The notes under the pieces are model-generated. The model saw nothing but the letters and a program-made list of their open reading frames with translations, was not told the origin of the DNA and searched no databases. This document shows, piece by piece, positions 15,785 to 38,926 of a stretch of DNA of 43,915 bases. The position numbers and the translations under genes are program-made. The DNA is from Granulosicoccus sp. (GTDB taxonomy: Bacteria; Pseudomonadota; Gammaproteobacteria; Granulosicoccales; Granulosicoccaceae), in the NCBI GenBank assembly GCA_023301795.1, contig JALZVU010000195.1, positions 1-43,915 on the forward strand, written 5' to 3'. Each line of letters starts with the position of its first letter. Position 1 is the first letter of the stretch.

Positions 15785-17014
15785 CTAGATCGTATCCAGT
15801 GACACCGATTTAATTTTCTCACTCAAGACGGTAAGCAGTTCGTTGTTGATAGCGCCGGTCACTGGCAAATTGTTATCCCTTTGAAATGCTCTGGCGGCAG
15901 CACTGGTTTTGTCACCTGGCATGCCATCTGCGGTTCCCAAGCGATATCCAAGAATCGTAAGCAATTGCTGCGCTTTCATAACGGTTTCTCTAGAAGGCTC
16001 AACCCGTGTCAGTGATTGTGGAATGGGCTGTTTATTCTGGATGTGCTCATACCAGGTAGAGCTGAGTTGCTGTGCCTCATTGATTTGAGCGGATGTCATT
16101 TGCTGTTTAAAGGACGATCTGTTCCCTCTGGCACCCTCCACATTTTGAGCAGCAGCCAGGTTAGTCCACGCGTAGGCTTTTACATAGCTCTGAGATACAC
16201 CTTCACCGTTGAAGTACATGATCCCGAGATTGAATTGTGCATTTGCATGCCCCTGTTCTGCAGCAAGCCGATACCAGTTCACCGCTTCTCGATCGTCTGC
16301 TGAAACACCTTCACCGAAGTCATAGCTCACTGCAAGAGAGAATTGAGCTTCAGCATGGCCTTGCTCTGCGGCAAGCCTGTACCATTTTACCGCCTCACGA
16401 TTGTCTACAGGGACACCTTCGCCGTTGTCATAGCTGAGTGCAAGATTGAACTGCGCTTTTACGTTCCCTTGTTCTGCAGCTAAGCGATACCACTTCACCG
16501 CCTCCCGGTCGTCTTCCATTACGCCTTCACCGTTGTCGTAGCTAAGTGCAAGATAGAGTTGCGCTTGAGCATATCCTTGTTCTGCAGCAAGCTTATACAG
16601 CTTCACGGCCTCGCTATCGTCTTCCGCGATTCCTTCGCCAAAATCGTACATTACTGCAAGATTGAATTGCGCTTTAGCATGCCCTTGTTCTACGGCAAGC
16701 CTGTACCACTCTACTGCTTTGAGATCATCGGCCGGAACACCCTCGCCGTGGCGAAACATTAGGGCCAGATTAAATTGCGCGCTCACATACCCTTGTTCTG
16801 CAGCAAGCCGGTACCATTTCACCGCCTGCAGATCGTTCTCCGGAACACCGTTGCCGAAATCGTACATAACGGCAAGTTCGAACTGCGCGTTTGCGTCTCC
16901 CTGTTCTGCCAACTCGCGGGCGGCTGTAAGGGACTCGTCAGCCTGCACCTTCAGAATCGGAAATGATGTCGCTAATAGGGCCGCTATGAATAATAGGAAA
17001 AAAGAGTGACGCAT
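15785..17014 (-). CDS. exported Sel1-repeat protein with peptidoglycan-binding domain
   Basis: A 409-residue protein. A signal peptide (FFLLFIAALLATSFPILKVQA) is followed by seven 36-residue Sel1-like repeats (residues about 39-290) of the form GHAxAQFNLAxxYDxGEGV, then AVKWYRLAAEQ. A degenerate unit and spacer follow, and residues about 345-405 form a PG_binding_1 domain (QQLLTILGYRLGTADGMPG, AARAFQRDNNLPVTG). Sel1 solenoids bind partner proteins, and the C-terminal domain should hold it at the periplasmic cell wall. The nearly identical repeat units at DNA level make copy-number change likely. It is monocistronic, with ordinary gaps on both sides. Confidence 0.88.
   Translation of the reverse strand: MRHSFFLLFIAALLATSFPILKVQADESLTAARELAEQGDANAQFELAVMYDFGNGVPENDLQAVKWYRLAAEQGYVSAQFNLALMFRHGEGVPADDLKAVEWYRLAVEQGHAKAQFNLAVMYDFGEGIAEDDSEAVKLYKLAAEQGYAQAQLYLALSYDNGEGVMEDDREAVKWYRLAAEQGNVKAQFNLALSYDNGEGVPVDNREAVKWYRLAAEQGHAEAQFSLAVSYDFGEGVSADDREAVNWYRLAAEQGHANAQFNLGIMYFNGEGVSQSYVKAYAWTNLAAAQNVEGARGNRSSFKQQMTSAQINEAQQLSSTWYEHIQNKQPIPQSLTRVEPSRETVMKAQQLLTILGYRLGTADGMPGDKTSAAARAFQRDNNLPVTGAINNELLTVLSEKIKSVSLDTI
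16145..16900. repeat. seven tandem 108-bp units encoding Sel1 repeats
   Basis: Seven in-frame 36-codon units with strongly conserved sequence, for example the recurrent CCTTGTTCTGCAGCAAGC segment on the plus strand. Each encodes one Sel1-like helix pair. Confidence 0.85.
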
Positions 17015-25664: not shown

Positions 25665-27179
25665 ATGATTGAAGGTTTGCTTATCGGTCTTCAGACCGCG
25701 TTTTCCCTCCAGAACCTATTGATGGTTATCGGTGGATGTCTTATCGGGACATTTATCGGCATGCTGCCGGGGCTTGGGCCCATGTCCATCATTGCCATCA
25801 TGATTCCGGTAGCCATATCGATGGGAGATCCATCGGCAGCACTTATCTTGTTGGCAGGGGTTTACTATGGCGCTATTTTTGGTGGCTCCACCTCCTCTAT
25901 ATTACTCAATGCGCCAGGCGTTGCAGGCACTGTAGCCAGTAGTTTCGATGGCTATCCAATGGCAAAGCAAGGTAAAGCGGGTAAGGCGTTAACCATTGCC
26001 GCTATTGCCAGCTTTTGCGGCGGCACTATTGGTGCGGTGCTGTTAATGATTTTTGCGCCTGCCTTGTCATCGGTTGCTTTGCTGTTCCATTCGTCCGAAT
26101 ACTTTGCGCTGATGATTGTTGGCCTATCGGCCATTGCGGCATTCGCAGGGCCCGGGCAGGTAACTAAAGCACTATTGATGACAGTCATTGGACTCATCCT
26201 GGCAACCGTCGGCGAAGGTGCGCTATTCAATATGCCGCGCTTCACCATGGGGCTGCTGGATTTGCAGTCAGGTTTTGGTTTCATAACCCTTGCCATGGCC
26301 ATGTTCGCCTTGCCAGAGGCCATCTATCTGGTGTTAAAGCCGCGCACGCCGAACACTGATGGTGGAGGGGAGATCAAGGATCTTCGTATTACCGCCGCTG
26401 AAGCCAGATCGATTGCACCGGTTATCGGTCGGCAGTCGATACAGGGGTTTTTCATCGGTGTTTTACCGGGTGCAGGCGCAACCATTGCCAGCTTCCTCGG
26501 TTATGCCGTTGAACGAAATATAGCTACGAAAACAGAACAGGATGAATTTGGCAAGGGATCTATCAAAGGTCTGGCTGCTCCCGAAACCGCCAACAACGCT
26601 GCGTGTACTGGCTCGTTTGTGCCGTTACTAACATTAGGCATTCCAGGCTCTGGTACCACCGCTATTCTGCTGGGTGCATTAATCGCGTTAAACGTGACAC
26701 CGGGGCCACGCTTGATGATCGACGAGCCACAGATATTTTGGTCGGTCATTATTTCCATGTACATCGGTAATCTGGTGCTGTTGATTCTCAACCTGCCATT
26801 GATTCCTTACATCGCCAAAGTATTGTTAGTGCCGCGTACCTACCTCATCCCCTTTATTCTGTTCTTTACGCTGATGGGGGCGTACATAGGCCAGAACAAC
26901 GCCACAGAGTTATTGCTACTGGTAGGTTTTGGTATTTGCGCCACCGCGTTGAAGTTTGCCAACTATCCCTTGGCACCGTTACTCATCGGTTTTATTCTGG
27001 GCGGTCTGCTGGAGAATAATTTCTCCCGATCCATGCAGCTATATGATGGCGTCTCGTTTATTTGGGAAAGGCCAATGACGCTTGGATTATTGATCGTCGC
27101 ACTAATCCTGATTGTGCTGCCAAGCTACCGCGCTCGCCGCGCCCGCATAGCAGGCGCGGCGGATGGCGATTCTATCTGA
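25665..27179 (+). CDS. tctA: tripartite tricarboxylate transporter large permease TctA
   Basis: A 504-residue protein with about 10-12 membrane helices and the TctA signatures: GTFIGMLPGLGPMSIIAIMIP, YYGAIFGGSTSSILLN, NAPGVAGTVASSFDGYPMA, and the second repeat GFFIGVLPGAGATIASFLGY with PETANNAACTGSFVPLL. These inverted repeats carry the ion- and substrate-linked loops of the family. It transports the TctC ligand across the inner membrane with cations. Its last 8 bases overlap the convergent amino-acid SBP gene. It is the end of the tctCBA operon. Confidence 0.95.
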   Translation: MIEGLLIGLQTAFSLQNLLMVIGGCLIGTFIGMLPGLGPMSIIAIMIPVAISMGDPSAALILLAGVYYGAIFGGSTSSILLNAPGVAGTVASSFDGYPMAKQGKAGKALTIAAIASFCGGTIGAVLLMIFAPALSSVALLFHSSEYFALMIVGLSAIAAFAGPGQVTKALLMTVIGLILATVGEGALFNMPRFTMGLLDLQSGFGFITLAMAMFALPEAIYLVLKPRTPNTDGGGEIKDLRITAAEARSIAPVIGRQSIQGFFIGVLPGAGATIASFLGYAVERNIATKTEQDEFGKGSIKGLAAPETANNAACTGSFVPLLTLGIPGSGTTAILLGALIALNVTPGPRLMIDEPQIFWSVIISMYIGNLVLLILNLPLIPYIAKVLLVPRTYLIPFILFFTLMGAYIGQNNATELLLLVGFGICATALKFANYPLAPLLIGFILGGLLENNFSRSMQLYDGVSFIWERPMTLGLLIVALILIVLPSYRARRARIAGAADGDSI

Positions 27180-28203
27180 CAGGCGGTGCGTAGATCAATC
27201 CGCCGTCGGTCCACAGTGCATTGATGCCGCGGGGTAATCCAATAGGGGTGTCGGGTCCAATGTGGCGGTCGTAGATTTCTCCATAGTTGCCGACTTGACG
27301 AATCACCCGTGTGCACCATTGCGCGTCCAGCCCCAATTGCGCGCCGCCGTCACCCTCAGTGCCTATCAGGCGTCTAATCGCAGGTGTCGTACCGATGTCT
27401 GCATCGTCCACATTTAAGCTGGTAACACCTAATTCTTCAGCGTTGATCATGCAGTTCAATGTCCATCGCACGACGTTTTCCCACTGGCTATCATTGGGCG
27501 GCACAACAGGCCCCAATGGCTCTTTCGAGATGACCTCCGGCAGAATGACATGTGCATCAGGTGTATCGAAAGCGCTGCGTCCAGAGGCCAAACCAGAGCG
27601 ATCAGTTGTCAACGCTTTACATTCGTCATTGCTGTATCCGGCGACAGCTTCGTTTTCATCGTCGAAAAACACGGGTCGATAGCGCATGTCGCTAACGATG
27701 AAGAAGTCTGCAGCGTTCAGCTCGGAGGTGGTGTTGCGAGTCACGCAGATCGGCTGATTATCAAGTTCAAGAGCGCTGCGATACCCTGATCGTTTTTTGA
27801 CCATAAAGCCCTGACCGTCGTAAAAATTAACACCAGCGTAGTCACCAAACAGTGTGTTTCGCTCCAGCGTCCATGTGGTGTTTCGCGATAGAACATCCAT
27901 GGCTCCCTGCTGCAGTACGATAAAACGTTCTGTACTGGATACTGTGATCATTTCAACCGCTTCGCTATCGTTAAAGATAGCGCTGGCAATGCCGCGGCAA
28001 ATATCGATATCAAATCCTGCGTACTCACCCAAGCTATTGGCACGAGCAAAACCTGCCAAATCTGTATGGACACCACAACGCACCGCACCGCGATCCCGCA
28101 CTTCGTCCAGGATGGCTGCCTGTGCACTGCCGATACTGGCAGCCAATACGATAACGCTAGCCGTCAGACGCGCATGCCGCGATAAATCAAGAAGTTTCAT
28201 CAT
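27172..28203 (-). CDS. AapJ/BztA-like amino-acid SBP, no permease nearby
   Basis: A 343-residue exported protein (signal LTASVIVLAASIGSAQAA). The fold and motifs match general L-amino-acid SBPs: LDEVRDRGAVRCGVHTDLAGF, GFDIDICRGIASAIF, QQGAMDVLSRNTTWTLER, and DAQWCTRVIRQVGNYGEIYDRH near the end. AapJ/BztA normally precede aapQMP permease genes; none is here. Instead its ATG overlaps the TAA of the upstream lipoprotein gene (TAATG), so it is the third gene of an operon with two OmpA-like lipoproteins. Its role may be sensing or ligand scavenging for that system, or it may feed a remote transporter. Confidence 0.85.
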   Translation of the reverse strand: MMKLLDLSRHARLTASVIVLAASIGSAQAAILDEVRDRGAVRCGVHTDLAGFARANSLGEYAGFDIDICRGIASAIFNDSEAVEMITVSSTERFIVLQQGAMDVLSRNTTWTLERNTLFGDYAGVNFYDGQGFMVKKRSGYRSALELDNQPICVTRNTTSELNAADFFIVSDMRYRPVFFDDENEAVAGYSNDECKALTTDRSGLASGRSAFDTPDAHVILPEVISKEPLGPVVPPNDSQWENVVRWTLNCMINAEELGVTSLNVDDADIGTTPAIRRLIGTEGDGGAQLGLDAQWCTRVIRQVGNYGEIYDRHIGPDTPIGLPRGINALWTDGGLIYAPPVR

Positions 28204-29294
28204 TATTCAGGCCGGTAGTGGACAAGCTCAACGGGGGTAGGGGAATCATCGGACGTATGTCTGTAACTAGCACGAGCACACGGGGCAATGAACGTGGATT
28301 GCGATGGAATGCCAAAGCCGAGTAGCTCCTGCTCCACGCGAATGGCGCGATTCATGGCAGCTGCATTTGCGCCGTCTGCATCCAGGCAGGCTTTGATCAA
28401 CATGATGTCGTCATCGCTAAAGCCATTCACCAGCAAGCGTACGGCCTGCTTGTTGGCGTTACCCATTATCTGGGTCTTGTTATCATCAAATATTAAAACC
28501 GTGCGTCGGTGTTTTTCATAATCATCCAGCTGTGGTGGCTGTCGCTCGGCTTGCATGGTAAAAAATCGTTCTCGAGCCTTTTCGAACACGACGCGCTGTG
28601 GCGTTCGCTTGTCTGCCGGTACTTCGTTATAGTCGCGTACATCGATGGTTTTGACAGCGAGGGTGGGATCGGGTTCGCCTTCAAGCTGCACTCCACTGAT
28701 GAAGGCGTCATTGTTGCCGCCTTGTTCAGCGAAGATACTATCCGACAGTTCAATATCGGCGATGGAGTCGGCACCATCGATGGTCATGAGTGACGATGGA
28801 TAGATGAGATCGCCTTGCACACTGTACTCACGCCGCAGCCTTATCCTTCCAGCTGAGAGCTCGTAATCGGTGACCAGACCGCTTTCGGTCTCAGAGAATC
28901 GTTTGCTGTACGAGACATAATTGCGCCCTTGATCTGCGCTAACGCGCTGCATGCCAAATCCGGCTTCCTCCAACGCACGAACAATCGCGTTACCGTAGGC
29001 GGTGCGAGGCTCATTGATCTGTAACGTTACGCTACCAGACTGCATACGAGGCACTTGCACCAAGGTGGACACCATATTGGTGGCTATGAGTTGCAAGTGA
29101 GCGCGTTCCGAGGCGCTGATTTGCTCCAGTACCGCCAAATCGCCGCCAGTGCGAGGTGTAACAGCTTCAGCGCTGATGCCGTAGGAATCACCAGCAGGGG
29201 TAGTGGAGCAGGCGCTCAGAACAGCCGTGCACAGCAGTACAAATGCGGTGCCATAGGTGAGTCGTTGCCGCATTGTCATTAGCTGCTCTTTCAT
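28203..29294 (-). CDS. lipoprotein with middle and OmpA-like domains (paralogue A)
   Basis: A 363-residue lipoprotein of unknown function (lipobox LSAC, about residue 29). Residues about 85-155 hold a domain shared with its two neighbours: ALEEAGFGMQRVSADQGRNY, then AGRIRLRREYSV. The C-terminal 100 residues are a diverged OmpA-like domain (TVLIFDDNKTQIMGNANKQA) with Cys303 and Cys339 in the same places as in the paralogues. The central part resembles N0/ring-building modules only in length and secondary-structure pattern. ATG 29294 overlaps the stop of paralogue B (ATGA), and its own stop overlaps the SBP start. It is the most diverged of the three, lacking the LALGRA motif. Confidence 0.75.
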   Translation of the reverse strand: MKEQLMTMRQRLTYGTAFVLLCTAVLSACSTTPAGDSYGISAEAVTPRTGGDLAVLEQISASERAHLQLIATNMVSTLVQVPRMQSGSVTLQINEPRTAYGNAIVRALEEAGFGMQRVSADQGRNYVSYSKRFSETESGLVTDYELSAGRIRLRREYSVQGDLIYPSSLMTIDGADSIADIELSDSIFAEQGGNNDAFISGVQLEGEPDPTLAVKTIDVRDYNEVPADKRTPQRVVFEKARERFFTMQAERQPPQLDDYEKHRRTVLIFDDNKTQIMGNANKQAVRLLVNGFSDDDIMLIKACLDADGANAAAMNRAIRVEQELLGFGIPSQSTFIAPCARASYRHTSDDSPTPVELVHYRPE

Positions 29295-30418
29295 GATGTT
29301 TCACGCCACAGTTCAAGAACGACACCGCGACCCGGAAATTTATCACCTGCGGACACTGGCGCCCAACAGCCTTCATCCAGAATACGCTCTCGCTCGACAC
29401 CTTGTGCCATAAGCGCTTGGGTGACACGTTCGGCACGACCCAAAGCCAGACCTTCGTTGCCGATCTCAAGTGCGGTTGGCCCGTTGCTACAGCCCACCAG
29501 GCTGATCAGATCGGTTGGGGCAAGACGCTGTTCTACGAGTTGCTCCAGAAGTGATTTATTGGTTTCACCCAGAATCATCGAATCGTCGCCGAACACGACA
29601 ATCTGTCTATCGATCTGTTCGAAGTTATCCAGTATTGAGGTGAAATTCGACTGATCGGCGTAGAAAAGGTTGTTGATCTCCACTCGATTGGAATTCAACG
29701 CTTGCAAGCTGGGTGTCTGTGCGCTGTTGTTGGCCACTCGATTGACAAGGTCGCTGGTGATCAGCGAAATCACGGGTGGTGCTTGCCCATCCAGGTTCAA
29801 TGAGGCCACATAAATGGCAGTGGAATTTGCCTCATCGCTCACCTGAAATCGCCCGTTGGCGGTGTCAGTGATTTGCACAGGAACTCGTGTGCCCGAGAGT
29901 CTGAATGGGCTGGCAGGAGATATGGTGTTTGCTCGTGGCACTGAGTAGTCCCGAGAAATATTCACAGCGCCAATAGAGGTTGAAAAACTGATCAGCAGCT
30001 CGCCGTTTTCATCGAGATCCTCAGTACTGGTGTAGCTGAAGAAATTGGATCCCTGATCTGCGCTAACACGCTGAATACCATAGCCTTCGTTGGCAAACGC
30101 ATTAATGAAATGCTCTAAAAGCGGATCGTCGTCATTACTGAATTGCAAGGTGGTATTGAACGGCGTGTAAATCTGCGTGGCCACCCGGATGACATCAACG
30201 GCTAATGATCGATCTACAGGGGAGACGGCTGCCGCTTCTTCAAACGCAGGATCGGAAGCTGATGTCACTACGGAATCGTCCAGTGTGGAACACGATGCCA
30301 GCGCTAAGGCCACCGCGACGACCAGCGTCCGGGCCAGAAGGTTGTGTGTTTGTTCAGCCGATCGGCGGCCGCTTATCGGTCTGGGTGCCCTGTTGTTACA
30401 GGAGCTTGAAATTATCAT
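29291..30418 (-). CDS. lipoprotein with middle and OmpA-like domains (paralogue B)
   Basis: I place the start at ATG 30418 (375 residues); the frame reaches 30490 and no start has a strong ribosome site. After a basic N-region comes a lipoprotein signal (TLVVAVALALASC). The shared middle domain has AFANEGYGIQRVSADQGSNF, and IGAVNISRDYSVPR. The C-terminal OmpA-like domain has IVVFGDDSMILGETNKSL, the peptidoglycan-binding-like GNEGLALGRAERV, and Cys310 and Cys351 (LVGCSNGP, DEGCWAP). It is the first gene of a B-A-SBP operon. Lipid anchor plus OmpA-like domain predicts a bridge between membrane and cell wall. Confidence 0.75.
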   Translation of the reverse strand: MIISSSCNNRAPRPISGRRSAEQTHNLLARTLVVAVALALASCSTLDDSVVTSASDPAFEEAAAVSPVDRSLAVDVIRVATQIYTPFNTTLQFSNDDDPLLEHFINAFANEGYGIQRVSADQGSNFFSYTSTEDLDENGELLISFSTSIGAVNISRDYSVPRANTISPASPFRLSGTRVPVQITDTANGRFQVSDEANSTAIYVASLNLDGQAPPVISLITSDLVNRVANNSAQTPSLQALNSNRVEINNLFYADQSNFTSILDNFEQIDRQIVVFGDDSMILGETNKSLLEQLVEQRLAPTDLISLVGCSNGPTALEIGNEGLALGRAERVTQALMAQGVERERILDEGCWAPVSAGDKFPGRGVVLELWRETS

Positions 30419-30708
30419 GTGAACTGGAAACTCCATAAAAATTATTGCTGTCGTCGCAAATGCTGGCAGCGATACTCGCTTTGAACCCAAACCATACCAC
30501 CAGATATCGTGTTTTTAGTGCCTGTCGTCCGCACAGGAAAGTGATGTTGAGAAACGGTGCAAGCAAGTCTGTGCCAATACGTGATTTATACCTCTAAAGC
30601 GCGTCAAGATACGATTGTATAGTGCGCATAACGCTGTGTCCGGCGCGTCTGAAATTTAAGACGCAAGCCGCTAACCGCCACCACTATACGGATTCGACGA
30701 GGATAGAC
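30419..30708. promoter_or_regulatory. divergent promoter region between paralogues B and C
   Basis: A 290-bp gap separates the starts of the two divergent lipoprotein genes and must hold both promoters. I see no clear operator palindrome; the only plain signal is the GAGGA ribosome site (30699-30703) of paralogue C. Confidence 0.45.
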
Positions 30709-31842
30709 ATGAAGATTTTCTCACTATTTATTGCGCTCATCGCACTGCAGCTGGGAGGTTGTGCCGCCTTTTCGAAGAGCGGTGAGCCATCGGATGCTGC
30801 CCCCGAGCGCTTGAGTCCTGAGGCGCTGATCGCAAGTGATTTTGTTAGCGCTGTTAGTCAGCTGGCAAGCATGCCTGCGCACACTACCACCATTGAGCTT
30901 TTGCAACCTGCGCGTAATGATGCGTTCACGCTGGCCATGGAAGGGGCTTTGGATAACGCCGGATACGGGACGCGATGGGTGGCAGACTCGGTATCGGGTT
31001 CGTTCTTTCAATACCGCAAGGATCGCAAGAACGCAGCAGCTGCAGCGCACGAGGACGTCTATGAATTGGCTTTCGGCAAGGTTGAATTGCGACGCAGCTA
31101 TGTCACTGATGCACAGCAGCGGGTACGGGTAAATTCGCCGTTGTATGTTCGCGGTGCGGATGCCAGAAATGTTGTTCTAAATGATGACCTGATAGCGCAA
31201 GCGAACGCTCTTTCAGGCACCGTTGCTCTCAAACTGGCCCCCAATCCGGAGCCAGACTCGCAGAATCTTCAGGCAGCGCGTGTGCACGCCGTGCCGCTGG
31301 AACGTGCTACACAGATCTCAACCACACCGACAAATTCGTTGGGTTTGCAGAACTCCTCTTCCTTGCGAGTGCCGTCTGATGCGAATCCGCTGAATCCAAT
31401 AGTGGCCAATACGACCAACGAGCGCTCGCTGTCTTTGCCACTCATAAATTTTCCTCGAGAACAGAACGTTTTCGATCTCGGCGGGTCAAATTTTGTCCAT
31501 TTATTGGAAGGGCGGACCACAATTGTTGAGCAAGTGCTTACCTTTCCCAATGATTCAATGCGCCTAGGCGCATCGAACAAACAGTTGGTTGAGCAATTGG
31601 TCACTCGCTTCAATCCACGAACCGATGTGTTTTCGGTGATTGGTTGTTCGATGGGTCCAACGCAGGTCAGAGGCGGTAATGCGGCGCTGGCGCTTGGCCG
31701 AGCTGGACGTGTTGTCGAAGCCTTGCGCTTTGCAGGTGTTGCTAATGAGCTCATCTTGGATGAGGGCTGCTGGGCAGGCGACGGTAGTATCGATAATTTG
31801 CCACGCAGGGGTGTTGTAGTTAGTCTTAATCGCGACGCTTGA
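30709..31842 (+). CDS. lipoprotein with middle and OmpA-like domains (paralogue C)
   Basis: ATG 30709 has GAGGA upstream and gives 377 residues; the longer frame adds an implausible N-terminus. Lipobox LGGC follows IFSLFIALIALQ. The middle domain matches the paralogues (ALDNAGYGTRWVADSVSGSF, FGKVELRRSYVTD). A Pro/Asn-rich spacer of about 90 residues leads to the OmpA-like domain: LTFPNDSMRLGASNKQLVEQ, GNAALALGRAGRVVEAL, with Cys313 and Cys354 in VIGCSMGPT and DEGCWAGD. It closely resembles paralogue B there. It is divergent from B-A-SBP and precedes a thioredoxin-like gene by 52 bases. Confidence 0.78.
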   Translation: MKIFSLFIALIALQLGGCAAFSKSGEPSDAAPERLSPEALIASDFVSAVSQLASMPAHTTTIELLQPARNDAFTLAMEGALDNAGYGTRWVADSVSGSFFQYRKDRKNAAAAAHEDVYELAFGKVELRRSYVTDAQQRVRVNSPLYVRGADARNVVLNDDLIAQANALSGTVALKLAPNPEPDSQNLQAARVHAVPLERATQISTTPTNSLGLQNSSSLRVPSDANPLNPIVANTTNERSLSLPLINFPREQNVFDLGGSNFVHLLEGRTTIVEQVLTFPNDSMRLGASNKQLVEQLVTRFNPRTDVFSVIGCSMGPTQVRGGNAALALGRAGRVVEALRFAGVANELILDEGCWAGDGSIDNLPRRGVVVSLNRDA

Positions 31843-31894
31843 GTGTAAGGATTTATCCCCATTCAAGTGAGCGGTGCGTAAACTAGTAGCCATT

Positions 31895-32398
31895 ATGAAA
31901 TTAAAAAACCTATATCGACGTCTTTTGTGTAGCGCCGTTGTATGCGCCGCTTTGATGGGAATGAGTCAGGCACACGCTTTTCTACTGCAGGACATGGAGG
32001 GCGAGCGTGTTGATCTGATGGATTATGTCGGTGATGGGAGTTGGACCCTCATGATGTTCTGGGCTACAGATTGCGTGGCGTGTGAGCAACAAAAACCTGC
32101 GCTAGAGGCATTTCATCGCATGCATCACGGAGCAGATGCCAAAGTGGTCGGTGTAGTTACTGACGGCTTTGAATTAAAAGACGAAATCGATGACCTGATG
32201 GCAAAACACGACCCCAGCTATCCTAATCTGGTGGTGTATTCCGATGTGTTCTTCAAGCAGTACGAGGAGCTAACCAATAAGTCGTTCAGAGTCACACCCA
32301 CGTTCCTGTTGTTCGGGCCTAATGGGGAGTTAAAAGGCAATCTTTACGGCTATGTCGACTTCAATGCAATTTCACAGCATGTGACAAGTCAAAACTAG
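31895..32398 (+). CDS. exported thioredoxin-like (TlpA/AhpC-TSA) protein
   Basis: A 167-residue protein from ATG 31895. Signal peptide LLCSAVVCAALMGMSQAHA, then a thioredoxin fold with active site CVAC (Cys60, Cys63) in MFWATDCVACEQQKP, and the cis-Pro in VTPTFLLFGPNG. It should act on thiols or disulfides in the periplasm, as TlpA/ResA-like proteins do. There is no cytochrome maturation gene in the window. Its position 52 bases downstream of paralogue C, whose OmpA-like domain has a conserved cysteine pair, suggests that lipoprotein family as a substrate (inference). A GTG at 31874 is an alternative start. Confidence 0.82.
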   Translation: MKLKNLYRRLLCSAVVCAALMGMSQAHAFLLQDMEGERVDLMDYVGDGSWTLMMFWATDCVACEQQKPALEAFHRMHHGADAKVVGVVTDGFELKDEIDDLMAKHDPSYPNLVVYSDVFFKQYEELTNKSFRVTPTFLLFGPNGELKGNLYGYVDFNAISQHVTSQN

Positions 32399-33906: not shown

Positions 33907-35808
33907 TTACCGTGTTTCGTCAGCGAACCACTGCAGTGCGTGGTCCTGATCTCGCTTGAGGATGACATGCCGATTAGCGAATAATTTGTAGGGTGCGCTC
34001 CACTGACCGTCTGGCCATTGCACCCGCACCGTGGCGCGTTCAGCTACCCCGAGTCCTACATGAATAAATCCTGCCATGCCGGAACTGTGGCCACCCCCCA
34101 CCTGTACCCGGCGACTTTGTACTACATTGCCTGTTTTTATCGATAGCCTTGCACCCACTGCATGGCGGTTGGCCCCTGCTTGTTGTAATTCCAGTTTGAG
34201 CCAGTTTCCGCCAGCACGGGTTGTATCCTGATGCTGCATGCCAGTATGGCGAAACACAGAGACATTGGTGTCGCGATTAACCACGACAATATCCAGCAAA
34301 CCGTCCGCGTTTAGATCAATAACGTTAGCACCACGGCCGCGCGTATCCAGAGCAATACCTGCGATATCACCTTGTTCACTGAACACGCCATCAGCACCTC
34401 CCATCAGCAGATTGTCGGGGTCAAAGCTGGCAAAGTCTTGCATGTTTTCGACATTGCCTTTGGCGATGAACAGGTCTAGCCTAGCATCGTTGTTCACATC
34501 TTCGAATTGTGCGTGCCAGCCGGTACTGGGCTTGATGTCATCACCTGTATAGGGCCGGTGGGCGGTTGCTTGTCGCGACCATGCCATATCCTCGTACGCG
34601 GGGCGGTTCTCATCAATAGCCTGTTGCAGGTCCAGTACCTGTAATTTAGTGTCGCCCATGGACGTCAGCGCGTACTCAGGGTAGCCGTCGGCATTGAGAT
34701 CAGTTTCGGCAATGCCCATACCCCAAATGACCAACGAGTCCCAGCCGTCAGCACGGCCATACAAGCGTGGATATGATCCACTGTTCAGGCGCCACAGTTG
34801 CTCTTCACCATCGCGATAGTAATGTCTGTCGTTAGTGATTCGCAGTGCATCGGTGCCGCTTTTGTTCCAGTCAGTGAATAGCATGGACAGCGCACAATAG
34901 CCTGGTGACAGGTTTTGCTTGTTGCTGTAGTCAGGATGTTGAATATCATCCTTGTTTGAGTTTGAGTTTGAGTTTGAGTTTGAGTTTGAGTTTGAGTTTG
35001 AGTTTGAGTTTGAGTTTGAGTTTGAGTTTGAGCCAGGTGTCTTGCTTGCGCTGATGCTGCCTGACGGCCGATGCAGCTCGTTATCATGACAAGTGCCCCA
35101 CGGAGAACCGGGCGCTGTGCGATCCACATAGTTTCCGAATGCGAGAGTAGGAAAGTGATGGCCTGCCTCGAACGTTGCGCTGAAGGCGGTGGTCCATGCG
35201 TTACCGCCATCAAACCCCCAGCTTGCATTGGCAGGCTTGAAACTACAATCCTCACCACCTTGAAAAATCTGATTACTGCCAACCCGCAACACGACAAGGT
35301 CTAGAAAGCCATCGTTGTTGATGTCGATGGGATAGCTTCCTAGAACGCCTTTTATATTGAGGGTTTCTGCTTTGCTGGCACTGAACGCAAGTTCACCTGC
35401 TAACTTGCTGTTGTTGATAAATAACGCGGCAGGCTCATTACCACCGGCAAAATACAACTCCGGTAATCTGTCACCGTTGCAGTCAAAACTACTGACGCCA
35501 CCGCCGACAAAATATTCCCACGGTCCTGCATAGCGATGTTCGATGCCAGCTTGTGCAGCCTGTTCCAGATAGGCAGGGATATCACCGCTGTACTGGTTGT
35601 CAGGATTATTAGCGTCAGACTCGGTGCCAGTGCCAGTGCCAGTGCCAGTGCCAGTGCCAGTGCCAGTGCCAGTGCCAGTGCCAGTGCTTGACGTGGACCT
35701 CGAGGATGCATTGGCCACAGCACCAGCGCTGAGGAGAATGAGCAACAATGCTGCGCCGCACTTGCCAATCGCACTTGAGCAACTTCTCATGGTGCCACTA
35801 GCATTCAC
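33907..35808 (-). CDS. exported FG-GAP/ASPIC-UnbV repeat protein with two dipeptide tracts
   Basis: A 633-residue protein. The GTG start at 35808 overlaps the upstream stop (GTGA); ATG 35790 is an alternative. Signal peptide ALLLILLSAGAVANA is followed by a Gly-Thr tract (residues about 41-61). FG-GAP/VCBS-type calcium loops recur: FDCNGDRLPELYF, IDINNDGFLDLVVL, DLNADGYPEYALT, VNNDARLDLFIA and DLNADGLLDIVVV. An Asn-Ser tract of 26 residues (about 260-285) splits the beta-propeller. The C-terminal 80 residues match ASPIC/UnbV (ARLSIKTGNVVQSRRVQVGG). It is an exported propeller of unknown role, in one operon with a di-haem oxidoreductase and xylB. Confidence 0.85.
   Translation of the reverse strand: MNASGTMRSCSSAIGKCGAALLLILLSAGAVANASSRSTSSTGTGTGTGTGTGTGTGTGTGTESDANNPDNQYSGDIPAYLEQAAQAGIEHRYAGPWEYFVGGGVSSFDCNGDRLPELYFAGGNEPAALFINNSKLAGELAFSASKAETLNIKGVLGSYPIDINNDGFLDLVVLRVGSNQIFQGGEDCSFKPANASWGFDGGNAWTTAFSATFEAGHHFPTLAFGNYVDRTAPGSPWGTCHDNELHRPSGSISASKTPGSNSNSNSNSNSNSNSNSNSNSNSNSNKDDIQHPDYSNKQNLSPGYCALSMLFTDWNKSGTDALRITNDRHYYRDGEEQLWRLNSGSYPRLYGRADGWDSLVIWGMGIAETDLNADGYPEYALTSMGDTKLQVLDLQQAIDENRPAYEDMAWSRQATAHRPYTGDDIKPSTGWHAQFEDVNNDARLDLFIAKGNVENMQDFASFDPDNLLMGGADGVFSEQGDIAGIALDTRGRGANVIDLNADGLLDIVVVNRDTNVSVFRHTGMQHQDTTRAGGNWLKLELQQAGANRHAVGARLSIKTGNVVQSRRVQVGGGHSSGMAGFIHVGLGVAERATVRVQWPDGQWSAPYKLFANRHVILKRDQDHALQWFADETR
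34955..35032. repeat. TTTGAG hexanucleotide repeat, 13 copies
   Basis: A perfect 78-bp tract of 13 TTTGAG units. On the minus strand it encodes alternating Asn and Ser in the ASPIC-type protein, so length changes would stay in frame. Confidence 0.95.
35624..35687. repeat. GTGCCA hexanucleotide repeat, about 10.7 copies
   Basis: A perfect GTGCCA tract inside the same gene encodes alternating Gly and Thr just after the signal peptide. It is the second independent hexamer tract in this one gene. Confidence 0.95.
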
Positions 35809-37441: not shown

Positions 37442-38479
37442 ATGAAAAAAACTGGAGCCCTTATTCTGGCTGCAACGGTATCAGCAGTTTTTGCTGGTCC
37501 TGTTCTGGCGGAAGGTAAAGTTATCGGTGTTTCCTGGTCCAACTTTCAAGAAGAGCGTTGGAAAACTGATGAGGCAGCTATGCTAGCGGCTATCGAGGCA
37601 GCGGGCGACTCATACATCTCAGCGGACGCGCAATCTTCTGCGGCTAAGCAGCTGACAGACATCGAAGCGTTGATCGCTCAAGGTGCTGATGCATTGATCA
37701 TCCTTGCTCAGGATTCCGGCGCCATTGGGCCTGCTATCGAGAACGCCGCGAACGAAGGCATCCCGGTAGTTGGCTATGATCGCCTGATTGAAAATCCTGA
37801 TGCGTTCTACATTACGTTCGATAACGTGGAAGTGGGTCGTATGCAGGCGCGGGCTGTACTGGAAGCGATGCCTGAAGGCAACTATGCGTTTATAAAAGGG
37901 TCGTCTCAAGATCCTAATGCTGATTTTCTGTTCGGTGGACAGATGGAAGTGCTCAAAGAGGCGATGGACAGCGGCAAGATCAAGAACGTGGGTGAAGCCT
38001 ATACCGACGGCTGGAAACCTGAGAACGCTCAGCGTAATATGGAGCAGATCCTCACGGCTAACGACAACAACATTGATGCTGTAGTTGCGTCTAATGATGG
38101 AACAGCTGGTGGTGTTGTTGCGGCGCTGGCAGGTCAGGGCCTTGATGGTTCAGTTCCAGTATCTGGCCAGGATGGCGACCATGCTGCATTGAACCGAGTT
38201 GCCCGCGGCACGCAAACGGTTTCTGTATGGAAAGATGCTCGGGTATTAGGTGCAGGTGCTGCCTCGATTGCCACGATGCTGGCCGACGGCAAAAGCATGA
38301 GTGATATTCCTGATAGCGTCAGCTGGGCCGGTGGTCCAAATGGTACCGAAATGACGGCTATATTCCTCGAGCCTGTGCCTATCAAAGCCGAAAATCTGGG
38401 CGATGTCATCGCTGCTGGCTGGATCGAGAAAGACAAGGTTTGTGAAGGCGCACTCGACACTGTTGCTGCTTGTCAGTAG
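37442..38479 (+). CDS. xylF: D-xylose ABC transporter substrate-binding protein
   Basis: ATG 37442 is preceded by GGAG (37433-37436) at 5-base spacing and gives 345 residues. Signal peptide [19 protein letters not shown]. It is a type I sugar SBP of the XylF branch: [80 protein letters not shown] and [10 protein letters not shown]-like [20 protein letters not shown]. It captures D-xylose in the periplasm for XylHG. It is separated from xylH by 447 bases that contain a large tetranucleotide repeat, which is unusual for one operon. Confidence 0.95.
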
Positions 38480-38926
38480 CCCACTTGTCTGGTAGATCGC
38501 TTTCTATGTCGGGTGGTCGCCAAACTAAGTAGTAAGTTAGTAAGTTAGTAAGTTAGTAAGTTAGTAAGCAAGTAAGCAAGTAAGCAAGTAAGCAAGTAAG
38601 CAAGTAAGCAAGCAAGCAAGCAAGCAAGTCGGCTCTGTATGAACTGCAGGTGCGCTGACGCTGAGGCAGCAGGTATTCGTCCTGTAATGGATGGGTACCT
38701 GCTCTCAGAACCCCTGGGGCGCAATTGAATAGCGCTGTGCACGACCAAGATTGCCTGTCGTGAGCTCTTTTGTTTGTGCAGCCCGCCTCAGCATAACTCG
38801 TTGAGTGATTCTGCAACCTGTACGTACATCGGCACGGAGTTGTGTCATGGATCGTCACTGAACAGTAAATCGCTCTGATTTAACCGTTTTGATTTCCGGT
38901 TTTTTCTTTTTTGAGTAGTCAATTCT
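38480..38926. other. 447-bp xylF-xylH gap with tandem repeat
   Basis: No supported gene. The left part holds a 100-bp CAAG/TAAG repeat (38529-38628); the right part, 38630-38926, shows no clear terminator or operator. Reading frames in the repeat give only Leu/Ala/Cys/Tyr strings and are artefacts. Confidence 0.6.
38529..38628. repeat. compound tetranucleotide repeat between xylF and xylH
   Basis: About 25 tetramer units arranged in three blocks: roughly four TTAGTAAG octamers, then about six CAAGTAAG octamers, then about five CAAG tetramers. The stepwise change suggests growth by slippage with point changes fixed between expansions. Confidence 0.93.

What the first reader, a model, noticed from the sequence alone, without database searches (positions are those of the whole stretch)
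27172..32398. Three-paralogue OmpA-like lipoprotein locus with an orphan amino-acid SBP and a thioredoxin
Three adjacent genes (28203-29294, 29291-30418, 30709-31842) encode lipoproteins with the same layout: lipobox, a middle domain with a GYG/GFG...ADQG...NF/SY pattern and a beta-strand ending in R-x-YSV, and a C-terminal OmpA-like domain. They arose by duplication and sit in a divergent arrangement, with an SBP start-stop coupled on one side and an exported thioredoxin-like gene on the other. I know no described system with this gene set. It could be an envelope ring or wall-anchored sensing complex; the function is inference.
Basis: partly seen in the sequence, partly recalled or inferred. 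Interest (0 to 1): 0.78.

Follow-up and report, generated by a model that had tools for sequence, protein, structure and literature searches.

The report
Orphan secretion-system lipoproteins with amino-acid binder
A marine bacterium carries a conserved gene cluster in which paired outer-membrane lipoproteins, each joining a part known from bacterial secretion machines to a cell-wall-binding-type part, travel with an amino-acid-binding protein and often a thioredoxin, although no secretion machine sits beside them; what the cluster does is not yet known.

Summary
The genome is Granulosicoccus-like (relatives named). Lp2 (29291-30418), Lp1 (28203-29294) and Lp3 (30709-31842) are paralogues; Lp2, Lp1 and the SBP overlap start to stop. 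The middle domain is homologous to TrbH, the VirB7-position lipoprotein of P-type T4SS (hhalign 98.2%, E 2.7e-14). Its nearest relatives outside the family are TrbH genes between trbG and trbI. The C-terminus has an OmpA fold (Lp2 model, Z 13.3) with a conserved Cys pair (75 and 76 of 76). Only the Lp1 clade keeps the pocket Asp (18 of 19; 0 of 57 others). The pair plus SBP is contiguous in 20 of 27 genus genomes, with the thioredoxin in 17 of those; pairs without SBP also exist. G000 has no TrbI and only a below-cut-off SctR hit. Relatives sit in a T4SS (L080) and beside T3SS export genes (L155, L157, L164). Most likely it is an outer-membrane scaffold derived from secretion machines that now holds an amino-acid-binding protein. 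Architecture is well supported; function is inference.

The parts
27172..28203 (-). Orphan AapJ/BztA-type amino-acid substrate-binding protein (SBP), 343 aa, exported
   Evidence: PF00497 43.6 bits; PDB 4z9n E 6.1e-102 over 29-343; canonical aapJ-permease-permease-ATPase set lies elsewhere, G000:C89
28203..29294 (-). Lp1: lipoprotein, TrbH-type domain plus degenerate OmpA-like domain that keeps the Asp and Arg of the diaminopimelate pocket
   Evidence: NCBIfam TrbH 18.8 bits, below cut-off
29291..30418 (-). Lp2: lipoprotein, TrbH-type domain plus OmpA-like domain lacking the pocket Asp
29894..30220 (-). TrbH-type domain of Lp2 (residues 67-175)
   Evidence: hhalign of the family profile to five true TrbH 98.2%, E 2.7e-14; separate model mean pLDDT 95
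29294..29629 (-). OmpA-like domain of Lp2 (residues 264-375) with Cys310 and Cys351
   Evidence: Z 13.3 to 9uu2, 3.0 A over 106 residues; Cys 75 of 76 and 76 of 76
30419..30708 (.). Divergent intergenic region between Lp2 and Lp3
   Evidence: promoter scan not above shuffles
30709..31842 (+). Lp3: third TrbH-OmpA lipoprotein paralogue, divergent
   Evidence: NCBIfam TrbH 24 bits, below cut-off; Lp3 clade SH-aLRT 99
31874..32398 (+). Exported TlpA/ResA-like thioredoxin, CVAC active site; likely start ATG 31895
   Evidence: PF00578 49.5 bits; CXXC in 22 of 22 homologue rows, two genes being listed twice

Best explanation
SHOWN: three paralogous lipoproteins, each a TrbH-type domain followed by an OmpA-like domain with an extra conserved Cys pair; two of them (Lp2, Lp1) are inherited as a pair and overlap in frame with an orphan amino-acid-binding protein; a thioredoxin is usually next door; the genome has no detected TrbI and only a below-cut-off SctR hit. 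INFERRED: Lp1 and Lp2 form a hetero-oligomer under the outer membrane through their TrbH domains, as VirB7-type lipoproteins do in the outer-membrane core of T4SS, but without a channel. Lp1, whose clade alone keeps both Asp and Arg of the pocket, holds peptidoglycan; the OmpA domains of Lp2 and Lp3, which lost the Asp, are docking surfaces, as proposed for DotK and Lpg0657. The SBP docks on this scaffold, so amino acids are caught near the outer membrane or wall and passed to the AapQMP permease encoded elsewhere. The thioredoxin keeps the disulfides of the lipoproteins, and perhaps of the SBP, correct. In short: a secretion-machine outer-membrane part re-used as a scaffold for nutrient capture.
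For: TrbH homology: hhalign 98.2%, E 2.7e-14 (control TrbH vs SBP 0.1%); NCBIfam TrbH model NF010457 matched by 29 of 56 rows, of which at most three are true TrbH rows; the best N-domain hits outside the family were TrbH between trbG and trbI in L088, L089, L090. Link: pair plus SBP in 20 of 27 genus genomes, several layouts, plus G028 of another genus; overlapping frames. SBP intact: Asp201 in 14 and Arg115 in 13 of 14 aligned (roles recalled). Separate aapJQMP. No TrbI in G000; SctR-type hit only below cut-off. Asp split 18 of 19 Lp1 vs 0 of 57. Use in machines: L080 T4SS, L155/L157/L164 T3SS.
Against: No measurement of any interaction, ligand or location. No complex could be modelled. The TrbH domain found no clear fold partner (best Z 5.6), so ring formation is by homology of position only. 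Three of 20 clusters lack the thioredoxin, and the thioredoxin also stands alone. Pairs without SBP exist: four with thioredoxin (G009, G013, second clusters of G021 and G026) and six with neither (G003 T4SS, G005:C12, G008:C37, G017:C101, G018, G023:C455). The six Cys of the SBP are also in the ordinary AapJ copies, so they do not argue for the thioredoxin. G017, G023 and G028 show no second AapJ-type hit at E 1e-20, though they are 82-88% complete.
Confidence: 0.35

Rival explanations
1. Envelope sensor in the manner of YfiBNR: the OmpA-type lipoproteins and the SBP form a redox- or ligand-gated sensor; the thioredoxin toggles the Cys pair beside the pocket and the SBP signals through an inner-membrane partner encoded elsewhere.
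For: YfiB is among the fold matches (5y61_B Z 11.3, 2.8 A over 99 residues). In YfiBNR an OmpA-like lipoprotein sequesters YfiR, and a cysteine-dependent redox role of YfiR has been suggested (PMC4655355, passages). Cys pair conserved in 75 and 76 of 76.
Against: I saw no receptor, cyclase or kinase gene that travels with the set in the ten loci listed; flanks differ between layouts. The SBP and thioredoxin matched other families. YfiR and YfiN were not searched.
Confidence: 0.2
2. Spare outer-membrane part of a secretion machine (T3SS or T4SS) encoded elsewhere; SBP and thioredoxin help it assemble.
For: Family members sit in a T4SS (L080) and next to SctR/S/T genes (L155, L157, L164).
Against: G000 lacks TrbI and its SctR-type hit is 188.9 bits, below 208.6 and in the range of the other below-cut-off hits, which I take to be flagellar FliP. 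Only 2 of 27 genus genomes have TrbI, 20 of 27 have the cluster; G003, the one with the T4SS pair, lacks the cluster.
Confidence: 0.15
3. General outer-membrane to peptidoglycan tethers that happen to share an operon with an SBP and a disulfide helper; no dedicated complex.
For: 50 of 85 lipoprotein clusters are single genes and ten or so pairs lack the SBP; OmpA-like domains are common, 25 hits in G000.
Against: Same gene order kept in layouts with different flanks, overlapping frames, similar branching of Lp1 and Lp2 by eye, Asp absent outside Lp1.
Confidence: 0.2

Closest known systems
TrbH, VirB7-position lipoprotein of P-type (RP4-like) T4SS; PF07283
   Same: Lipobox, same domain over nearly its whole length, a shared Gly and Arg, one relative (L080) directly after trbI
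   Different: Here about 375 aa with an added OmpA-like domain, in several paralogues, without trbG/trbI nearby; below all curated TrbH cut-offs
Dot/Icm outer-membrane cap: DotD plus DotK and Lpg0657
   Same: VirB7-row lipoprotein combined with two proteins that resemble peptidoglycan-binding domains but lack key residues (PMC7511231, passages); Foldseek ranks Dot/Icm cap chains 18th and 20th for the Lp2 model
   Different: Separate chains there, one chain here; DotD has an N0 domain (recalled), which the TrbH model did not match clearly; no channel here
Xanthomonas VirB7 with N0 domain
   Same: A VirB7-type lipoprotein enlarged by a globular domain that oligomerises (PMC3093366, abstract)
   Different: Extra domain is N0 there, OmpA-like here; part of a T4SS there
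YfiB of YfiBNR; Pal and other OmpA-like lipoproteins
   Same: Lipid anchor plus OmpA-like domain; Z 11-12
   Different: No TrbH domain (recalled); no SBP or thioredoxin in the set
AapJ/BztA SBP of amino-acid ABC transporters
   Same: About 50% identity to the ordinary copies, binding-site residues kept
   Different: No permease or ATPase in the operon; overlaps in frame with a lipoprotein gene

Membership tests
TrbH (PF07283, NCBIfam TrbH) | Profile homology over the domain | tested here: met
   hhalign 98.2%, E 2.7e-14 over 103 columns
TrbH (PF07283, NCBIfam TrbH) | Score over the curated cut-off | tested here: not met
   Best window score 31.2 bits against 162; Pfam TrbH matched 2 of 53 rows at E up to 0.01
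TrbH (PF07283, NCBIfam TrbH) | Gene beside trbG/trbI of a T4SS | tested here: not met
   None seen among the window's frames and G000 has no TrbI; met only by relative L080
OmpA-like domain | Fold | tested here: met
   Lp2 residues 267-372, Z 13.3, 3.0 A, 106 residues; Lp1 and Lp3 not modelled
OmpA-like domain | Score over Pfam cut-off | tested here: not met
   Lp2 20 vs 27.2 bits; Lp1 and Lp3 no hit
OmpA-like domain | Asp and Arg of the diaminopimelate pocket (roles recalled) | tested here: inconclusive
   Arg 74 of 76; Asp 18 of 19 in Lp1, 0 of 57 in the rest
AapJ-type SBP | Full-length homology to a solved amino-acid SBP | tested here: met
   4z9n E 6.1e-102
AapJ-type SBP | Permease and ATPase in the same operon | tested here: not met
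   None beside it; permease- and ATPase-like frames follow the other copy (by look)
TlpA/ResA thioredoxin | Thioredoxin-fold family with CXXC | tested here: met
TlpA/ResA thioredoxin | Curated ResA or TlpA cut-off | tested here: not met
   40.5 vs 170 and 39.8 vs 230 bits
Type IV secretion system | VirB10/TrbI in the genome | tested here: not met
   0 in G000, 97% complete
Type III secretion system | SctR over cut-off in the genome | tested here: not met
   188.9 vs 208.6 bits
DotD/VirB7 N0 domain | N0 fold of the middle domain | tested here: inconclusive
   No clear fold match, best Z 5.6
YfiBNR | YfiR and YfiN partners | not tested
   No search made

The most novel reading that the evidence does not exclude
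The TrbH domain is a portable outer-membrane lipoprotein adaptor that Granulosicoccaceae have moved between a T4SS, T3SS operons and a machine-free module. In the last, two TrbH-OmpA subunits, one wall-binding and one not, form an asymmetric ring or patch that carries an amino-acid-binding protein under thioredoxin control: a secretion-derived, redox-gated nutrient or wall-fragment capture complex of a kind not described.
Probability: 0.25. Interest if true: 0.82.

Novelty: new variant of a known kind. Interest (0 to 1): 0.6.

Why it matters
It gives a natural test of how an outer-membrane part of a secretion machine can be taken over for another job. It adds a single chain of VirB7-row plus OmpA-type parts to set beside the Dot/Icm cap, where the two are separate chains. 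It gives a confident model (mean pLDDT 95) for the TrbH-type domain, and an asymmetric pair (Asp kept or lost) that simple binding assays can test. The 27 genus genomes show 0 to 7 matches of the family each, some genes being split into two matches, so the family is a large unexplained investment of the genus.

Tried and rejected
Rejected: plasmid or phage origin. No plasmid match to Lp2 at E up to 0.01 and no PHROG match for the three lipoproteins at E up to 0.01. Rejected: part of a T4SS in this genome. Thought unlikely: chance neighbours, because the set recurs in several layouts; no formal null was computed, and the ten clusters of the window layout also share flanking genes, so they count as one arrangement.

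Led nowhere: fold search with the TrbH-type domain. Foldseek best E 9.1e-4 to chain B of an LptDE complex (9q8n) with TM about 0.28; next 0.099. VIA best Z 5.6 to a Tim21 fusion, 4.0 A over 88 residues, then Tim21 4.9 and 4.5 and a mix with LptE, PelC and NTF2-like chains near 3.5-4. The tool warns that such values may mean only a common arrangement. Profile of the small partner protein in L045-type operons: best E 0.2 in PDB. Promoter and terminator scan: counts within shuffles. Literature: searches gave nothing on this set (six terms together, gave 0 papers; the others gave listings that I judged from titles, abstract starts and term counts, apart from passages of PMC7555446).

Weak points kept: absence of the full-length family outside the order rests, where at most five candidates per genome were scored and genomes were a sample of the class. 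The T3SS link is not universal. Of 15 SctR loci over the cut-off in 13 of 48 genomes, three contigs end at SctT or before it (L174, L175, L176); of the other 12, five have a TrbH-type lipoprotein within 2 kb downstream (three adjacent: G790, G780, G015:C80; two after a gap of about 1 to 2 kb: L170, L171, where the genes that follow are metabolic) and seven have none in the stretch fetched. The T4SS with TrbH-OmpA genes is a single case (G003). In the tree, L080_7201 joins Lp1 with only 86 support on a long branch, and the tree was made by the quick method. Rows dropped: one search found 81 hits in the loci then held, of which 76 different sequences over 280 aa went into; one search left out the TrbH, L080 and L076 rows on purpose.
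Full report
WHAT IS THERE. The window is contig C195 of a 5.78 Mb draft genome, 97% complete. Its closest relatives bear the name Granulosicoccus or Granulosicoccaceae where names are given. Lp2 overlaps Lp1 by ATGA and Lp1 overlaps the SBP by TAATG, so the three are very likely translated as a unit. Lp3 and the thioredoxin run the other way.

WHAT THE LIPOPROTEINS ARE. NCBIfam gives weak hits to conjugal transfer protein TrbH for all three, far below the curated cut-offs. I tested this four ways. (a) A profile of 53 family members searched over 369 genomes of the class (at most five candidates scored in each) gave, outside the window's family of genomes, mostly ordinary OmpA domains plus a few N-terminal hits; the three best of the latter (L088, L089, L090) are each a 138-185 aa lipoprotein gene lying between a VirB9/TrbG-like and a TrbI-like gene (these two neighbours named by look), and Pfam calls all three TrbH over its cut-off. 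(b) Profile against profile, with those rows left out: 98.2%, E 2.7e-14 over 103 columns; the same TrbH profile against the SBP profile gave 0.1%. (c) Scanning 56 N-domains one by one, NCBIfam TrbH model NF010457 was matched by 29, of which at most three are true TrbH rows. (d) A family member (L080, G003) is encoded directly after trbI in most of a T4SS: TrbE, TrbL, VirB8, CagX/VirB9, TrbI, then TrbH-OmpA, a bacterial PH-domain protein, and a second TrbH-OmpA, with a VirB11-type ATPase, a lytic transglycosylase and a coupling protein upstream.

The C-terminal domain of Lp2 has the OmpA fold: model mean pLDDT 83, VIA Z 13.3 to 9uu2 and 12.9 to 3td5, best Foldseek E 2.3e-6. Across 76 different family sequences the lipobox Cys, Gly112 and Arg156 are invariant, Cys310 is in 75 and Cys351 in 76, and the OmpA Arg in 74; the pocket Asp is in 18 of 19 Lp1 and 0 of 57 others. 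The match of the Asp to Lp2 Asn312 follows the OmpA alignment printed; the roles of Asp and Arg in binding diaminopimelate are recalled. That the two Cys form a disulfide is inferred; I had no coordinates to measure.

DUPLICATION AND PAIRING. In the tree of 76 rows (quick method) the genes at the Lp1, Lp2 and Lp3 positions each form one clade (96, 95, 99). The duplications therefore came before the spread of these lineages. Other pairs (L073, L081, L062, L080) place one partner near Lp1 (support 91 and 86, not strong), which hints that an Lp1-type and a second subunit have long gone together.

THE LINKED SET. From, joined with a 1.5 kb limit: 20 of 27 genus genomes have pair plus SBP (14 of the 17 listed at 90% completeness or more); G028 of another genus too. 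Layouts: ten as in the window; six with two lipoproteins, thioredoxin and SBP in one direction; four (G028 included) without thioredoxin; one (G008) without Lp3. Four further clusters are pair plus thioredoxin without SBP, G011 has a broken version, and six pairs have neither partner (two further bare 'pairs' are one gene split into two hits). Fifty of 85 lipoprotein clusters are singles. Flanking genes differ between the layouts, but within the window layout they are kept too. The full-length family was found only in the order of the window: 34 of 48 genomes there have a match, but in genus g4 the matches cover the TrbH part only.

THE PARTNERS. The SBP is of the AapJ type (4z9n, E 6.1e-102). 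Arg115 and Asp201, which I take from recalled HisJ-type chemistry to hold the ligand, are kept in 13 and 14 of 14 aligned rows, two of them ordinary AapJ. Its six Cys are in all 14 rows as well, so they are not special to this locus. The ordinary aapJ with two permease-like genes and an ATPase-like gene stands elsewhere in G000 and G024 (named by look). I recall, without a call, that 4z9n was solved with glutathione; that is a lead only. The thioredoxin is TlpA/ResA-like with CXXC in 22 of 22 listed rows, two genes being listed twice, but it also lives alone.

WIDER USE OF THE DOMAIN. TrbH-type lipoproteins without the OmpA part follow type III export genes in G790 and G780 and in the Granulosicoccus G015. 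SctR, SctS and SctT are over their NCBIfam cut-offs in L155 and L164; in L157 SctR and SctT were tested and pass. In G015 the next gene is a separate OmpA-type protein (7.3e-19 to a YiaD/OmpA model): the same two parts that are in one chain in the window stand there as neighbours. The link is not universal: 5 of 12 T3SS loci that could be judged, two of the five after a gap.

HOW IT MAY WORK. VirB7 anchors and steadies the outer-membrane core complex (PMC12624023, passages), and that review lists TrbH and DotD in the same row. In Dot/Icm, two proteins that resemble peptidoglycan-binding domains, DotK and Lpg0657, sit beside DotD and are suspected not to bind peptidoglycan because key residues are missing (PMC7511231, passages). 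The window family reads like DotD and DotK parts in one chain, in two versions, with one version still fit to bind the wall. With no channel, the simplest job is a scaffold for the co-translated SBP. A dedicated thioredoxin-family isomerase for envelope machines has precedent in F-plasmid TrbB (PMC7555446, passages). Scaffold plus capture is my first choice (0.35); sensing (0.2), plain tethering (0.2) and service to a distant machine (0.15) follow.

VERDICT. The structure of the locus is real and conserved, and the middle domain is now identified. The function remains inference. I rate it a new variant of a known kind (secretion-system outer-membrane lipoproteins), with interest 0.6.

Noticed in passing
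L155:6212-7042, L157:3359-3910, L164:5246-6358: TrbH-type lipoproteins without OmpA part directly after non-flagellar type III export genes; in L164 followed by a separate OmpA-type gene, and its lipoprotein ends in a DUF4384 domain.
   Followed up: partly
L045:7056-9488 and the same set in L048, L066, L068: Single TrbH-OmpA lipoprotein followed by a 235-250 aa exported protein that looks secretin-N0-like to me (no Pfam support in the three tested) and a small membrane protein with weak Y4YQ_C and T2SSC hits in the two tested.
   Followed up: partly
L080:5520-16966 with L142:1375-6726: T4SS with two TrbH-OmpA lipoproteins in place of TrbH, in one genome only (G003).
   Followed up: partly
L061:8789-9499 (similar-looking gene in L064 and L137): A CAP-domain lipoprotein gene sits just upstream of the pair-plus-SBP operon where the thioredoxin is missing; only the L061 gene was tested.
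   Followed up: no
window 34954-35032 and 35624-35687: Perfect hexamer repeats (13.2 and 10.7 copies) inside the 633-aa open frame 33907-35808, coding runs of Ser-Asn and Thr-Gly.
   Followed up: no
window 38531-38629: Eight-base tandem repeat, 12.4 copies, shortly after the frame ending at 38479.
   Followed up: no
window 16227-16889: Tandem 108-base units inside the open frame 15785-17014, suggesting a repeat protein.
   Followed up: no
L144:2579-4012 (G000:C235): A further family member of the window's genome, split into two matches by a stretch that weakly matches the LED repeat model.
   Followed up: no
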